A DNA stretch of 64,000 nt from Mycoplasmopsis phocirhinis. Lineage in GTDB: Bacteria; Bacillota_I; Bacilli_A; Mycoplasmatales; Metamycoplasmataceae. The position numbers were made by a program, and so were the translations under genes. Positions 13,202 through 33,479 of this stretch are shown here, in pieces (position 1 is the stretch's first letter; each line of letters begins with the position of its first letter). The notes under the pieces are model-generated. The model worked only from the letters and a program-made list of their open reading frames with translations. It did not search any database and had not been told where the DNA came from. The DNA is taken from contig NZ_CP034841.1 of NCBI RefSeq assembly GCF_004216495.1, positions 744,001-808,000 on the forward strand, in the 5' to 3' direction.

Positions 13202-14149
13202 TTATATTTTATTTTTAATTTTAACATGTTTTATTTGTTCGTACGCACACATGGCTATCATTGCTCCATTATCGGTTGCATATTTTAAATTTGGCACAAT
13301 TGCTTTTTTACTTAATTTTAAAAATTCTTCTCTTAATTTAGTATTAGCACTCACTCCACCGGCTAAAGTAAGCGAATTAACTTTGAATGATTCTAATGCA
13401 TTTTGTGTTTTAGAAATTAAATATTCAATTGCTGTTTGCTGAAAACTTGCGGCAATTTTTTCTTTATCTATTTTTTGTTTTTTCATCACCTGCGTGTTAT
13501 AGTAATTTAAAACTTGTGATTTTAAACCACTAAAACTAAAATCATATGGTTTGTCGGTGTGCGGTTTTGTAAATTTAATGTATTCGCCTGTGTATGATTG
13601 ATAAATTTTATCTATTATTGGCCCACCTGGAAAACCTAATCCGAGTTTTGAACTAATCTTATCATATGCCTCGCCAACAGCGTCGTCTAATGTTTCGCCA
13701 ATAACTTCGATATTGAACGGATCTTTGACATACATTAATTGAGTATGTCCGCCTGATACAAGCAAACATAAAGATGGGTATTCAACATTTTGCTCAATAG
13801 CATTTGAATAAAAATGACCTTCTAGATGGTTGATAGGAATTAATTTTTTATTTAATACAAGGGATAATGCACTCGCGAATAAATAACCTATTTGTAATGT
13901 GCCTATTAAACCCGGTTTTTGCGTATAAGCTATAAAATCTATAGTTTCAAAATCATATTTATTTTGAAAAAATAATTGAATAATATTGATATTTGAAACG
14001 TGTATTCTTGAACTAATTTCAGGAATAGTGCCACCAAATTCTTTAAAAATGTCGATTTGACTAATTGTTTTCATTTCCAATATTTTGCCATCTTCTAAAA
14101 GCGCAATTGATGTATCATCATGACTAGTTTCTATACCTAAAATACGCAT
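13202..14149 (-). CDS. tsaD: tRNA N6-adenosine threonylcarbamoyltransferase TsaD
   Basis: Catalytic subunit of the t6A modification complex, transferring threonylcarbamoyl to A37 of ANN-decoding tRNAs. It has 315 residues with the ASKHA fold: GIETSHDDTSIAL at the start, the metal-binding HLEGHFYS histidine pair near residue 110, LLVSGGHTQL, and AGGVSANTKLR near the C-terminus. The start ATG shares one base with the tsaB stop, so tsaE-tsaB-tsaD form a translationally coupled operon. All three partners that work together in bacteria are present here; TsaC/Sua5 is not in the window. Confidence 0.97.
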   Translation of the reverse strand: MRILGIETSHDDTSIALLEDGKILEMKTISQIDIFKEFGGTIPEISSRIHVSNINIIQLFFQNKYDFETIDFIAYTQKPGLIGTLQIGYLFASALSLVLNKKLIPINHLEGHFYSNAIEQNVEYPSLCLLVSGGHTQLMYVKDPFNIEVIGETLDDAVGEAYDKISSKLGLGFPGGPIIDKIYQSYTGEYIKFTKPHTDKPYDFSFSGLKSQVLNYYNTQVMKKQKIDKEKIAASFQQTAIEYLISKTQNALESFKVNSLTLAGGVSANTKLREEFLKLSKKAIVPNLKYATDNGAMIAMCAYEQIKHVKIKNKI

Positions 14150-14706
14150 TATTTACCTCCAATTTGTGGTTTTTTAATGTAGTATGGTTCAATATTGATA
14201 ATGTCTTTTTGGTGTGTGAATAAAGTTATATAATTCTGAAAATTATTGAATATTTCAATATAATCGATTGTGTTATAAGATACATTTTCATTGTCTAAAA
14301 TCTCAATATTTTTTACATCAAAAATTTTATTATTAGTATTTTGATATGCATAAACTTTTGATCCTGAAGCATTAATTAAAAAATTATTTTTAAGTGGGTT
14401 TTGTTTTATTAGTATTTGCATTGAACTAATTGTATTTATTTGGGCTTTTGTGATTAAAGCTATTGTTCTAACATAAACCAAAGCAATTCGCACACCAGTA
14501 AAATAACCCGGTCCTAAATTTAGGTAAAAATCAGTAATTTCATTGATGTTTATTTTGTTTTTTTTCAATAATTTTTCAGTGTTTTCAACCAATAATTTAA
14601 CTTTTTTAGGAACATTTTTAAGCAGTATAAATTCAAGACAATAGTTATTTTGGTTTAATAAAGCAAGAGCAAAATCATCACCAGTTGTGTCAATAAATAA
14701 TTTCAT
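14149..14706 (-). CDS. tsaB: tRNA threonylcarbamoyladenosine biosynthesis protein TsaB
   Basis: Non-catalytic ASKHA-fold partner of TsaD in t6A synthesis, 185 residues. The family signature appears as LNLGPGYFTGVRIALVYVRTIA (canonical GPGSFTGLR) near residues 67-88. The rest is divergent, as usual for TsaB in mollicutes. It overlaps tsaD by one base downstream and tsaE by one base upstream, which supports the assignment independently of similarity. Confidence 0.93.
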   Translation of the reverse strand: MKLFIDTTGDDFALALLNQNNYCLEFILLKNVPKKVKLLVENTEKLLKKNKININEITDFYLNLGPGYFTGVRIALVYVRTIALITKAQINTISSMQILIKQNPLKNNFLINASGSKVYAYQNTNNKIFDVKNIEILDNENVSYNTIDYIEIFNNFQNYITLFTHQKDIINIEPYYIKKPQIGGK

Positions 14707-29088: not shown

Positions 29089-30066
29089 ATGAAGTTAGGT
29101 GTATTAGAACACGGTTTGTTAACTCGCGACAAAAATTATAAAAAAACATACAATGATGTAATAGATTTGTGTAAATATACTGAAAAGTTAAATTTTGATT
29201 CTTTTTGAGTTAGTGAACAACATGATGTAAATGCGTTAGTAATTTCATATCCACTTATACTTCTAAATCATTTAGCTAATCACACTAAAAAAATTAAAAT
29301 TGGTTGTGGTGGAATAATGTTAAAACATTATCAACCTTATTCAATTGCTGAACAAATTAATACTTTAAATATACTTAATCCAAACAGATTTATTTTCGGT
29401 TTCGGTAGTAATTCTGGAACAGAAAAAATACGTCAATTATTAAATTCAAATAATAGCGAAAATTATTACGCAAAAGTACTAAAAGTAAATGAATTTCTTA
29501 ATAATACTAACAAAAATACCCGTGTTAAACCGTTTAGTGATCAATATAGCACACCTGTTTTATTGATTACTTCTGAACAAAGTGCTATTTTTGCTGCTGA
29601 AAATAAGTTAGATATAATCTATGGCTGATTTTTAAATCCTTCACAAATTTATGCCCAGATAGTTATCGATACATATATTCAAACATATAAACAAAAATGA
29701 GGTTTGCAACCTGATAATATCGGTTTAAGCGTTAATATAGTGAGTGGTTTTGACACAAATGAAACTGAACAAAATGGAAAAATTGTTGCTGCTTTTAGAA
29801 AAGGTGTAAATAACTGAAACGAATTTGAGTACTATCCAGCACCAGATGAATTTAACACAGAAAAATATAATTTTGATGCTGATTTTCAAAGATTCTATAA
29901 AAATGTTTTTAGTATTAATTCAGTTCAGGATGTCAACAAGCTAGATGAATTTTGCAAAAAACTTAATGTTAATAACTTGATATTGTTACCTACTATGGCT
30001 AAACAAGAACATAAAAAACTAGCATTAAATTATGTTGCTAATTTTTACAAAAGAAATGGAGAATAA
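29089..30066 (+). CDS. luciferase-like monooxygenase family oxidoreductase
   Basis: LLM-class flavin-dependent oxidoreductase, 325 residues, TIM-barrel. MKLGVLEHGLL at the start, KLNFDSFWVSEQHDVNAL (family W-x-S/A-E-H), IKIGCGGIMLKHYQPYSIAEQ and NPNRFIFGFGSNSG match the bacterial MsnO8-like group. First gene of a five-gene operon with a GcvH-like protein, a class-M sirtuin, lipoate ligase and an old yellow enzyme homologue. This set is the extended form of the SirTM locus described in staphylococci and streptococci. Its substrate is unknown; a redox role linked to the lipoyl carrier is inference. Confidence 0.85.
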
Positions 30067-30067
30067 A

Positions 30068-30409
30068 ATGAAAAAAGTTGCAAAATATTTAATTATTGAA
30101 AAAACACAATCAAATTTATATTATTTAAGAATGACACCAGAAATGCAAGATGATATTGGAACAATAGGTTTTTTACAATTTAAAAATACAGATAAAACCC
30201 TGTTAAACACTAATGATGAATTTGCGTCATTAGAAGCTTCAAAAGCTGTATTAACCTTAAAAATGCCTTTGGACGCAAAAGTTGTTGAATGAAATCAAGC
30301 TGCTAAAAACGACCCTAAATTGATTAGCTCAGCCAACGATGAATTAAACTGAATTATGAAACTATCAGATATTGATGAGAATGTGTTTGCATCTCTTGAA
30401 GATTTTTAA
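30068..30409 (+). CDS. glycine cleavage H-like lipoyl carrier protein (GcvH-L)
   Basis: Lipoyl-carrier protein of 113 residues. The modified lysine is expected in SLEASKAVLTLKMPLDAKVVEWN (E-x-x-K hairpin, about residues 57-79), as in GcvH. No other glycine-cleavage genes are nearby, so this is the GcvH-L type, which in SirTM operons is first lipoylated and then mono-ADP-ribosylated. The start at 30068 begins MKKVAKYLIIEK; an in-frame ATG 36 bases upstream lies in the previous gene. The next gene starts in the overlapping TAATG. Confidence 0.92.
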
Positions 30410-31287
30410 TGATGTGAAATAACAATGTTAAAAACATTAAGCAATTACTTGAATTAATTAATCAAGCAGACGCACTTGTTTTAGGAATAGGTTCAGGAAT
30501 GACAGCGGCAGATGGTATTGGTTATACTGGTACCAGATTTGAACAAAATTTCAGTGATTTTATTGAAAAATTTAAATTTTTGGATATGCTACAAGCAAGT
30601 GTATATCACTTTGAAAACATTCAAAATTATTGAGCTTTTCACAGTCGTTTCATGGAATTAAATTATTTTAATCAACTACCTAGTCAAAGTTTTATAAATT
30701 TGAAAAAATTTTTAGATAATAAAAACTTTTTCATTATTACTACAAATTCTGATAATGCATTAGAAGCAGCAAATTTTGATGATAAAAAAATATTTTATAT
30801 TCAGGGTAAATATAATTTATTACAGTGCAAATCTATGTGTCATAACAAAAGATATTCAATGGATAATGTTGTTCGCCAAATGATTCATGAACAAAAAAAT
30901 ATGTTAGTTCCTTTAGAAATTATTCCACATTGTCCGGTTTGTGGTGATTTCTTGGAAGTTAATAAAAGACTTAAAGAAAAAGGAATGGTTGAGGATGAAC
31001 AATTTTTTATTGAAAAACAACGATATTTAGATTTTATAGATCAACACAAAAATAAAAAAATTTTATTTTGAGAAATAGGTGTTGGTTATTCAACACCAAT
31101 GTTAATTAAACATCCATTTTGAAATATGACACAACAATACCCTAATTCGTTATACGTTGCGATGAATAATCGCACTTACCGTATTCCAAATGAAATAAAA
31201 AACCAAACAATAGTAATTAATACAGATATAAAACATGTTATAGAAAATTTAATAAAGGAAGAAGATGATTTTAGTAGAACCAATTAG
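30409..31287 (+). CDS. class-M sirtuin, ADP-ribosyltransferase type (SirTM)
   Basis: Sirtuin-fold protein of 292 residues. Visible: NAD loop GIGSGMTAADGIGYTG (about 26-41), TTNSDNA with Asn113, Gln132 in YIQGKYN where deacetylase sirtuins have the catalytic His, and a Cys4 zinc site (Cys140, Cys144, Cys175, Cys178). Loss of that His and the genomic context identify the SirTM class, which modifies lipoylated GcvH-L with ADP-ribose instead of removing acyl groups. Asn118/Gln137 of the streptococcal enzyme, as I recall them, sit at the same spacing. It overlaps GcvH-L by one base and lplA by 23. Confidence 0.92.
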
Positions 31288-32311
31288 AAATGGAAAATAC
31301 ATTAAAGATGGGGCTTATTGATTAGCCATTCAAATTTGAGCTGTCAATAATCTAAAATTAGATGATACAGTTGTTTTTCCGGGAATTGCTGATCCGCATG
31401 TACAAATAGGGTATTTTCAAAATCCTGAAGTTGAAGTTAATTTTAAGTATTTAAAAGATAAAAAAATAGATATTGTGCGAAGAAACACGGGTGGAGGAGC
31501 TATTTATTTAGATTCTAATTCGTGCAATATTTGTTATTTAATACCATACAAAGATAATGAATCAATTATTGGAAATTACCAAAAATTTTATGCTCCCACT
31601 ATTAAAATTTTAAAAGAAATGGGTGCTAAAAATGTTACTCAATCTGGTAAAAACGATTTAAGCATCGATGGTCGCAAAGTTTCTGGTGCTGCGATGATGT
31701 TGATTGACGATGTAATTTATGGTGGTAATTCATTACTTTATAATGTGGACTATGATGCGATGATTGATGTTTTAAAACCTAATCGTAAAAAAATTGAATC
31801 TAAAGGAATCAAGTCTGTTAGACAAAGAGTTGCAGCTTTGAGTGAATATTTAGACGAAGAATACAAAAATTTAGATATTTTTGAATTTAAAGAAATCTTT
31901 TTGAAAAAATTATTCAATACTGATGATTTACGTAAAGTAAAACGGTACGAATTAAGTGAAAAAGATTGAAGTGAAATCGATGAATTAGTAAATACTAAAT
32001 ACAAAAATTGGGATTGAACTTTTGGTTTAAGTCCACGTTATTCATATAATCGTGATGCGAGATTATCAATTGGCACAATTAATTTTTCAATTGAGGTTGA
32101 ACAAGGCAAAATTGATAAAATTAAAATTTCAGGTGATTTTTTCACTAAAAAAGACTTAACCATTTTAGAGCAAGAACTAATTGGAACTAAAATGGTGCGT
32201 GAAGACTTAATTTTAGCTTTAGAAAAAGCACAATTAGATTCTTATTTTTTCAATCAATTAAATCCTTGTGAAATTGTTGATGTCATCTTAGACGAATCGG
32301 AAAATGAATAA
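31265..32311 (+). CDS. lplA: lipoate-protein ligase A family
   Basis: Ligase of 348 residues that activates lipoate with ATP and attaches it to a carrier lysine. The active site is intact: IVRRNTGGGAIYLDSN (canonical RRxSGGGAVYHD), GKNDLSIDGRKVSGAAM with the catalytic Lys. The C-terminal accessory domain (about 255-348) begins SPRYSYNRDARLSIG. The position next to GcvH-L makes that protein the likely substrate, as for LplA2 of SirTM loci. ATG lies in the 3' end of the sirtuin gene, with GGAAGAAG before it. Confidence 0.95.
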
Positions 32312-33479
32312 ATATATTGAACTTTTCAAACCACTTTCACTTAATGGGTTTGAATTAAAAAATAGATTTGTACTTTCACCAATGACATTAAATTTAACAA
32401 CAATAGATGGCAAAATGACACCTGAAGAAATTGCTTATGCCAAAAGAAGAGCTTTTTCGGCACCATTACAAATCACTGGTGGGGCATATTTTGATGAATT
32501 TGGCCAATTGTTTAAATACGGATATAGCGCTAAATCAGACGATGATATTGAATCATTAAAACAACTAGCACAAGCAATGAAAACTGAACAAAACCGAGTT
32601 ATTTTACAGTTAGCACATGCTGGAAAATTTGCTAAAATTTCTCTTCAAAAATATGGTTATACTTATGGACCATCACCTGAACAAAATAATTGACCTTTCA
32701 AACATGATGTTTATGAAATGAGTATTGAGCATATTCAAAAAGTAATTAAAGCCTATGCAGATGCTACTTTACGAGCAATTAAAGCAGGTTTTAATGGTAT
32801 TGAGATATCAATGGCACAAAGATTATTAATTCAGACTTTTTTTAGCAAAATAGTTAATAAACGCAATGATATTTATTCAGCATCCAATTTTGAAAATCGT
32901 TCAAGATTAGCTCTTGAAATAGTTGAAGCAATACGTAATGTGATTGATCGTTATGCTTCTAAGGATTTTATTTTTGGCTTTCGTGCTACACCTGAAGAAA
33001 CTTATGGCGGCGAAATAGGTTACACAATTGATGAATTTAACCAATTAATTGATTCTATAATTGAAAAAGGACAAATATCTTATTTAGCTATTGCTAGTTG
33101 AGGTCATGATATTTATTTAAATAAAGTGCGTTCAGAATCTAAACATAAAGGTCAATTAGTTAATAAAATTGTGTATGAGCATATTAAAGGTAGAATTCCA
33201 GTTATTGCTAGCGGTGGAATTAATACAGCCGATAAATGTCTTGAAGCTTTTAAATATTGTGATTTAGTTGGTTTAAGTTCAGTATTTGTTGCTGATCCTG
33301 AATTTGTGCAAAAAATTGCGTCAAATAAGCTTGAGTCTATTAATTTATCACTCAAAAAAGAACAACTGAATGATTTAGCAATACCACAAAGTTCGTTCAC
33401 TGATGTTGTTAATATGTTTGGTTATTGTGAAACTATTCCTAGTGACACTTTGAGTGTTCTTGAAAATAATGCTAAATAA
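32304..33479 (+). CDS. old yellow enzyme family flavoprotein with altered active site
   Basis: NADH:flavin oxidoreductase of 391 residues, FMN TIM-barrel. FKPLSLNGFELKNRFVLSPM, LQLAHAGKFA, ATPEETYGGEIGYTIDEF, PVIASGGINTADK and GLSSVFVADPEFVQK are typical. The substrate-anion pair of the family, two His or His/Asn in EIHGAHGYL, is missing: the corresponding GIEISMAQRLL has Ser169 and Gln172. Flavin binding seems kept. It overlaps lplA by 8 bases and is the last gene of the operon, followed by a terminator. Such an OYE is a known member of extended SirTM operons. Confidence 0.88.

What the first reader, a model, noticed from the sequence alone, without database searches (positions are those of the whole stretch)
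29089..33479. Compact SirTM (class-M sirtuin) lipoate operon with no macrodomain gene
Five overlapping or abutting genes encode a luciferase-like oxidoreductase, GcvH-L, a class-M sirtuin, lipoate ligase and an old yellow enzyme homologue. In the staphylococcal/streptococcal SirTM loci, lipoylated GcvH-L is mono-ADP-ribosylated by SirTM, and a macrodomain in the same operon removes the mark. Here writer, carrier, ligase and redox partners are kept, but no macrodomain lies between or beside them. Either the eraser is elsewhere, or reversal works differently in this mollicute. The whole module can be read as one redox-sensing post-translational switch in a minimal cell.
Basis: partly seen in the sequence, partly recalled or inferred. 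Interest (0 to 1): 0.8.

Follow-up and report, generated by a model that had tools for sequence, protein, structure and literature searches.

The report
Mycoplasma SirTM operon without its eraser
A group of mycoplasmas keeps an intact gene set for tagging a lipoic-acid carrier protein with ADP-ribose but has lost every recognisable gene of the macrodomain kind that removes this tag in other bacteria, so the tag is either one-way here or removed by something not yet known.

Summary
At 29089-33479 (+ strand, code 4) lie five tightly packed genes: LLM, GcvH-L, SirTM, LplA, OYE. The sirtuin's best match among solved structures is S. pyogenes SirTM (E 4.5e-98). It keeps the class-M residues Asn113, Gln132 (QG for HG) and Arg187. 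GcvH-L keeps the lipoyl lysine (K59) and the ADP-ribosylation residues E25/D28.

No macrodomain exists anywhere in this closed 865-kb genome, by Pfam search, by Zn-Macro profile, and by an exhaustive six-frame scan. The absence is lineage-wide: 28 of 298 sampled Mycoplasmatales genomes carry SirTM, all 28 carry GcvH-L, and none has a macrodomain. Outside mollicutes, 43 of 45 extended operons contain the Zn-macrodomain, and the two exceptions encode it elsewhere. Mollicute SirTMs form one clade (99/94), sister to the macrodomain-bearing operons, which points to a single early loss. The genes are under strong purifying selection (SirTM dN/dS 0.03-0.07).

In Spiroplasma-sized relatives lacking SirTM, the Glu needed for ADP-ribosylation is Lys. 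This suggests that the writer still acts on GcvH-L wherever it is kept.

Best reading: a conserved writer-only variant of the SirTM/GcvH-L system, reset slowly (turnover, ester lability) or by an unknown non-macrodomain eraser. Activity itself is untested.

The parts
29089..30066 (+). LLM: luciferase-like flavin monooxygenase (TIGR03558/MsnO8-like group)
   Evidence: Pfam PF00296 E 5e-18; TIGR03558 E 7e-48, just under its cut-off
30068..30409 (+). GcvH-L, 113 aa, lipoyl carrier and predicted ADP-ribose acceptor; K59 (Spy K56) predicted lipoyl site, E25 and D28 (Spy E24, D27) predicted ADP-ribosylation residues
   Evidence: phmmer to 5a35 (S. pyogenes GcvH-L) E 2e-26; residues conserved 36/36 in mollicute loci
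30242..30244 (+). codon of K59, predicted lipoylation lysine (EASK motif)
   Evidence: alignment with S. pyogenes K56; the equivalent K56 of M. hyopneumoniae GcvH is lipoylated in vitro (PMC7186572)
30149..30151 (+). codon of D28, predicted ADP-ribose acceptor (Spy D27)
   Evidence: alignment; D27A abolishes modification in PMC4518038
30409..31287 (+). SirTM, class-M-type sirtuin, 292 aa; predicted lipoylation-dependent ADP-ribosyltransferase
   Evidence: phmmer to 5a3a E 4.5e-98; N113, D115, Q132-G133, R187, N253 and four zinc cysteines (C140, C144, C175, C178) present
30802..30804 (+). codon of Q132, the glutamine that replaces the catalytic histidine of other sirtuins (Spy Q137)
   Evidence: invariant in all mollicute, extended and pair SirTMs compared
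31265..32311 (+). LplA: lipoate-protein ligase (LplA2-like), predicted to be dedicated to GcvH-L
   Evidence: TIGR00545 E 2e-94 above cut-off, PF21948 and PF10437; clusters with operon ligases, away from the genome's second ligase
32304..33479 (+). OYE: old-yellow-enzyme-type NADH:flavin oxidoreductase
   Evidence: PF00724 E 6e-48; about 49-54% identical to OYEs of the macrodomain-bearing operons

Best explanation
This is a macrodomain-less variant of the extended SirTM operon. Inferred mechanism: (1) the operon LplA attaches lipoate to K59 of GcvH-L; (2) SirTM uses NAD+ to mono-ADP-ribosylate lipoyl-GcvH-L at D28, with E25 needed; (3) the flavoenzymes OYE and LLM work on or with lipoyl-GcvH-L, and the ADP-ribosyl group blocks that; (4) no macrodomain eraser exists, so the modified state is reset only slowly, by new GcvH-L synthesis and dilution or by hydrolysis of the labile Asp ester, or by a non-macrodomain enzyme not yet recognised. 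The eraser was lost once, near the base of the mollicute lineage of the operon, while writer, carrier, ligase and OYE stayed under strong selection. Shown here: gene content, conserved catalytic and acceptor residues, genome-wide absence of macrodomains, single mollicute clade, purifying selection. Inferred from the S. pyogenes/S. aureus biochemistry and, for step 1, from M. hyopneumoniae: steps 1-3. Step 4 is a hypothesis.
For: Homology to the characterised SirTM and GcvH-L. N118/Q137/R192 equivalents, each needed for activity in PMC4518038, are invariant in mollicute SirTMs; E24/D27/K56 equivalents are invariant in 36/36 mollicute GcvH-Ls. Macrodomain absent from 28/28 SirTM-bearing genomes, from all their loci, and exhaustively from this genome; the control rings in 11/11 non-mollicute SirTM genomes and 0/7 mollicute ones. 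Mollicute SirTM clade 99/94, sister to the extended-operon clade, with macrodomain-linked pairs as outgroup; the LplA tree agrees. dN/dS 0.03-0.07 for SirTM and 0.02-0.07 for GcvH-L. Natural control: three 1.5-2.1 Mb relatives keep GcvH-L-LplA-OYE without SirTM, and there E24 is Lys while D27 and K56 persist. No P-protein in this genome, so no glycine cleavage role.
Against: No enzyme activity of any mollicute SirTM has been measured. GcvH-L E36, a macrodomain-contact residue in PMC11490716, is lost in 35/36 mollicute GcvH-Ls and its net charge drops from -13 to -4; about half of that drop is a general basic shift also seen in the other operon proteins, so it is only weak support. Two nicotinamide-contact positions of SirTM differ (A34 to S, F42 to I/N), so activity could differ. 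An eraser of another family cannot be excluded by sequence search. E24K comes from one lineage in which the operon is also decaying.
Confidence: 0.6

Rival explanations
1. A dedicated eraser exists but belongs to another enzyme family encoded elsewhere in these genomes, replacing the lost Zn-macrodomain; the switch is as reversible as in staphylococci.
For: A mark with no removal is unusual. In G. haemolysans and three lone-SirTM genomes the macrodomain sits away from the SirTM locus, so eraser and writer need not be linked. This genome has at least one Nudix-type hydrolase by motif, and NUDT16 can act on protein-bound ADP-ribose (PMC4518038).
Against: No macrodomain and no ARH/DraG family member in this genome. 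No conserved extra gene beside the mollicute operons. Nudix cleavage would leave phosphoribose on the acceptor, not restore it.
Confidence: 0.22
2. SirTM is its own eraser: altered contacts in the nicotinamide pocket let nicotinamide drive the reaction backwards, releasing NAD+ and free GcvH-L.
For: At Spy A34 and F42, which contact the nicotinamide amide in PMC4518038, the mollicute enzymes mostly carry S and I/N while the macrodomain-bearing extended operons keep A and F/Y. That paper found S. pyogenes SirTM insensitive to nicotinamide and suggested a protected site.
Against: Macrodomain-linked pair SirTMs also vary at these sites (L, V, I, S), so the change is not specific to losing the eraser. 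Mollicutes are one clade, so this is a single coincidence.
Confidence: 0.06
3. SirTM in mollicutes has drifted to another target or activity (for example deacylation) and GcvH-L serves only as a lipoyl carrier for OYE/LLM.
For: Some divergence of the NAD loop; one diverged second SirTM copy in G210.
Against: Q137, N118 and R192 equivalents invariant; the catalytic His of deacylases is absent; GcvH-L E24/D27 invariant wherever SirTM is present and E24 lost where it is absent; GcvH-L is immediately upstream of SirTM in every mollicute locus.
Confidence: 0.08
4. GcvH-L acts mainly outside the cell as a host-directed protein, as reported for M. bovis GcvH, and the operon's modification enzymes tune that role.
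For: PMC11156438 reports that M. bovis GcvH reaches the host ER and inhibits apoptosis.
Against: The same operon occurs in environmental Bacillaceae such as Lentibacillus and Oceanobacillus. That paper's text does not mention lipoylation, sirtuin or operon, and M. bovis also has a diverged GcvH paralogue, so which one was studied is unclear.
Confidence: 0.04

Closest known systems
Extended SirTM operon of Staphylococcus/Streptococcus (GcvH-L, Zn-Macro, SirTM, LplA2, OYE, LLM; Rack 2015, PMC4518038)
   Same: Five of the six components, catalytic and acceptor residues, GcvH-L-SirTM-LplA order; sister clade in the SirTM tree.
   Different: No Zn-macrodomain in the operon or genome; GcvH-L abuts SirTM directly; OYE lies downstream of LplA instead of upstream; GcvH-L is less acidic and has lost E36.
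Lone SirTM/Zn-Macro pairs of Bacilli, and Macro-SirTM fusions (Mfs1-type in fungi)
   Same: Sirtuin class with QG motif.
   Different: Those have the macrodomain and lack GcvH-L, LplA and the oxidoreductases; the pairs form a separate outgroup clade.
Gemella haemolysans SirTM operon (L162, L163)
   Same: Operon without a macrodomain gene.
   Different: A Zn-macrodomain is encoded elsewhere in the genome, and its SirTM groups with Abiotrophia, not with mollicutes: an independent relocation.
M. hyopneumoniae Mhp-Lpl/GcvH pair (PMC7186572, PMC7873978)
   Same: Same mollicute lineage; GcvH-specific ligase and K56 acceptor shown in vitro; GcvH-L is next to SirTM in G043.
   Different: The papers do not mention the sirtuin or ADP-ribosylation.

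Membership tests
SirTM (class M sirtuin) | QG in place of the catalytic HG of other sirtuins | tested here: met
   Q132-G133; invariant across all SirTMs compared
SirTM (class M sirtuin) | Falls within the SirTM clade | tested here: met
   Best solved-structure match 5a3a, E 4.5e-98; mollicute clade sister to extended-operon SirTMs at 99/94 and 97/85
SirTM (class M sirtuin) | Genetic linkage to a macrodomain (source of the name) | tested here: not met
   None in operon or genome. It is a SirTM by sequence and phylogeny but not a 'macrodomain-linked' one.
SirTM (class M sirtuin) | ADP-ribosyltransferase without deacylase activity | not testable with these tools
   Needs purified enzyme; active-site residues N113, Q132, R187 present
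Extended SirTM operon | GcvH-L and LplA2 beside SirTM, with LLM and OYE | tested here: met
Extended SirTM operon | Zn-macrodomain gene between GcvH-L and SirTM | tested here: not met
   GcvH-L and SirTM overlap by 1 nt; Macro present in 43/45 non-mollicute operons and 0/35 mollicute loci
GcvH-L | Lipoyl lysine, Glu24 and Asp27, no C-terminal helix of canonical GcvH | tested here: met
   K59, E25, D28; 113 aa ending at the same LEDF/LEDA position as 5a35
Glycine cleavage system | P-protein (GDC-P) present | tested here: not met
   0 in own genome; no match over the cut-off in any of 298 genomes of the order

The most novel reading that the evidence does not exclude
Mycoplasmas run SirTM/GcvH-L ADP-ribosylation as a one-way or self-reversing system: a protein modification whose writer is under strong selection with no eraser of any known family, so the modified carrier itself, or its slow turnover, is the functional output.
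Probability: 0.4. Interest if true: 0.7.

Novelty: new variant of a known kind. Interest (0 to 1): 0.52.

Why it matters
SirTM and the Zn-macrodomain have been presented as an obligate ON/OFF pair, to the point that the sirtuin class is named after the linkage. That gives a natural experiment on what the mark does when it is not actively removed, in very small genomes, and makes the open question of GcvH-L ADP-ribosylation directly testable with five small recombinant proteins. It also gives a likely biological setting for the GcvH-specific lipoate ligase of M. hyopneumoniae, described without mention of the sirtuin.

Tried and rejected
First genome-contig scan with the single SirTM protein found nothing; an alignment that included the S. 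pyogenes sequence worked. The class-wide SirTM search returned only lone pairs as outgroups, no extended operons. Promoter and terminator scans were uninformative in this A+T-rich DNA (45 promoter-like sites against 34 expected). First count of SirTM residues used the wrong numbering offset and was redone by window numbering. The acidic-surface loss of GcvH-L looked striking (median -13 to -4) but LplA, OYE, LLM and SirTM also become more basic, by 3-4 charges per 100 residues against 8 for GcvH-L, so I give it little weight. Nicotinamide-pocket changes as the cause of macrodomain dispensability were set aside because macrodomain-linked pair SirTMs vary there too. The weak own-genome Zn-Macro hit (816716-817093, E 0.1) has no Pfam domain and is treated as chance. 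Four lone-SirTM loci without an adjacent macrodomain were checked: three have a strong macrodomain elsewhere, and the fourth has a truncated SirTM and only a weak macrodomain hit below the cut-off. Anti-phage sirtuin models in PADLOC do not match.
Full report
What is there. The five ORFs at 29089-33479 are real, co-directional and packed with gaps or overlaps of 1-23 nt. Four are identified by Pfam/NCBIfam. The sirtuin escapes Pfam but matches S. pyogenes SirTM (5a3a) over nearly its whole length at E 4.5e-98 and, weakly, a Macro-SirTM-type protein (8rsn); GcvH-L matches S. pyogenes GcvH-L (5a35) above any canonical GcvH. A RibF-like FAD synthetase gene lies upstream and ileS downstream.

Is the eraser really missing? 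The window lies in a single-contig 865,472-bp genome (99.8% complete). PF01661 finds nothing in it; a profile of 11 Zn-macrodomains finds nothing in 298 genomes of the order at E 0.1; and hmmsearch --max over every six-frame segment of at least 40 residues in the reassembled genome gives a best E of 0.1 and no Zn-macrodomain motif, while the same motif hits 42 of 42 real Zn-macrodomains. No ARH/DraG-type hydrolase is present. The same Pfam search rings at E < 1e-33 in 11 of 11 non-mollicute SirTM genomes and in none of 7 mollicute ones, so the negative result is informative.

How widespread is it? SirTM occurs in 28 of 298 sampled Mycoplasmatales genomes, all in one family and in 5 genera. Macrodomains occur in 1 of 298, in a genome without SirTM. 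By exact genome length (my own knowledge) G234 is M. bovis PG45, G163 M. agalactiae PG2, G043 M. hyopneumoniae J, G157 M. conjunctivae and G222 M. californicum; named records include M. simbae, M. agalactiae, M. bovis, M. hyorhinis and M. ovipneumoniae. In every locus GcvH-L directly precedes SirTM, and LplA follows it in every genome (in one it is fused to OYE); OYE and LLM are each missing beside some of them. Outside mollicutes, 43 of 45 extended operons hold the Zn-macrodomain (one as a Macro-SirTM fusion); both exceptions are G. haemolysans strains with a Zn-macrodomain elsewhere.

When was it lost? In an 87-row tree of SirTMs, mollicutes form one clade (99/94), extended-operon bacteria its sister (97/85), and macrodomain-linked pairs the outgroup (100/100). 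The LplA tree agrees. The simplest account is one loss of the macrodomain on the mollicute stem. The downstream position of OYE is shared by the mollicutes and differs from Staphylococcus and Streptococcus.

Is the module functional? SirTM N113, Q132 and R187 correspond to S. pyogenes N118, Q137 and R192, each needed for activity (PMC4518038). GcvH-L E25, D28 and K59 correspond to E24, D27 and K56; all three are invariant in 36 of 36 mollicute sequences. Pairwise dN/dS is 0.03-0.07 for SirTM and 0.02-0.07 for GcvH-L. The genome has no glycine decarboxylase, so GcvH-L is not a glycine cleavage subunit. A second lipoate ligase, 31% identical, sits at 4.7-5.7 kb, and the only other lipoyl domain is a 78-aa ORF next to PDH E2. 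This matches M. hyopneumoniae, where one ligase is GcvH-specific and the other serves PdhD as well (PMC7186572, PMC7873978). The lipoylated GcvH of those papers, with K56 in SKT and 16 lysines, fits the SirTM-linked GcvH-L of G043 (counted on the sequence).

A natural control. Three larger mollicute genomes (1.5-2.1 Mb, Spiroplasma-sized) keep GcvH-L-LplA-OYE without SirTM. Their GcvH-L reads PKLQDD where SirTM-linked mollicute sequences read ELQDD or EMQDD: the Glu whose mutation nearly abolishes ADP-ribosylation in the characterised system is Lys, while the acceptor Asp and the lipoyl Lys persist. Diverged GcvH paralogues in M. bovis and M. agalactiae, away from the operon, have also lost this Glu and the EASK motif. 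So the ADP-ribosylation signature is kept where the sirtuin is kept, which argues that mollicute SirTM still modifies GcvH-L. The caveat is few lineages, and decay of OYE in all three and of LplA in two.

Mechanism. I take the writer half as in PMC4518038: LplA lipoylates GcvH-L, SirTM then ADP-ribosylates it, which probably blocks its use by OYE (lipoylation-dependent binding of OYE to GcvH-L was shown there). What differs is the way back. Slow reset by turnover or ester hydrolysis fits slow-growing cells and needs no gene; an unknown eraser and self-reversal by nicotinamide are the rivals. Sequence cannot decide between them.

Novelty. The components and their biochemistry are known. I found no paper describing SirTM operons in mollicutes or SirTM genomes without a macrodomain (open-access text only; supplements not read). 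M. hyopneumoniae proteomics lists the sirtuin, a ligase and the OYE as consecutive accessions without interpreting them as this system (PMC6634062). I rate it a new variant of a known kind.

Noticed in passing
L137:2120-3841 (Aerococcaceae bacterium DSM 111176): A bacterial Zn-Macro-SirTM fusion protein (573 aa) within an extended operon with GcvH-L and LplA; PMC4518038 describes such fusions only in fungi.
   Followed up: partly
L109:5256-7469 (G210): LplA and OYE fused into one 737-aa ORF directly after SirTM, supporting functional coupling of ligase and OYE; the same genome has a second, diverged GcvH-L/SirTM pair at 13281-14491.
   Followed up: partly
L197, L198, L199 (1.5-2.1 Mb, Spiroplasma-sized genomes): GcvH-L-LplA-OYE operons that lack both SirTM and macrodomain, with OYE broken by frameshift or insertion in all three and LplA in two; GcvH-L carries Lys at the E24 position.
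   Followed up: yes
   Followed up: partly
L104-L107 (M. bovis/agalactiae group): Tandem duplication of the operon LplA; in L105 the second copy is shortened.
   Followed up: no
L202:1895-2131, - strand (own genome about 501.4 kb): The PDH E2 lipoyl domain is a separate 78-aa ORF directly after the E2 core gene; no other lipoyl domain was found in the genome.
   Followed up: partly
window:28148-29014: RibF-like FAD synthetase directly upstream of the two-flavoenzyme operon in the window; a 288-aa ORF sits at the same place in its closest relative (L097/L117).
   Followed up: no
L078, L088, L090: Lone SirTM genes in other Bacilli without an adjacent macrodomain but with a strong macrodomain hit elsewhere in the genome.
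   Followed up: partly
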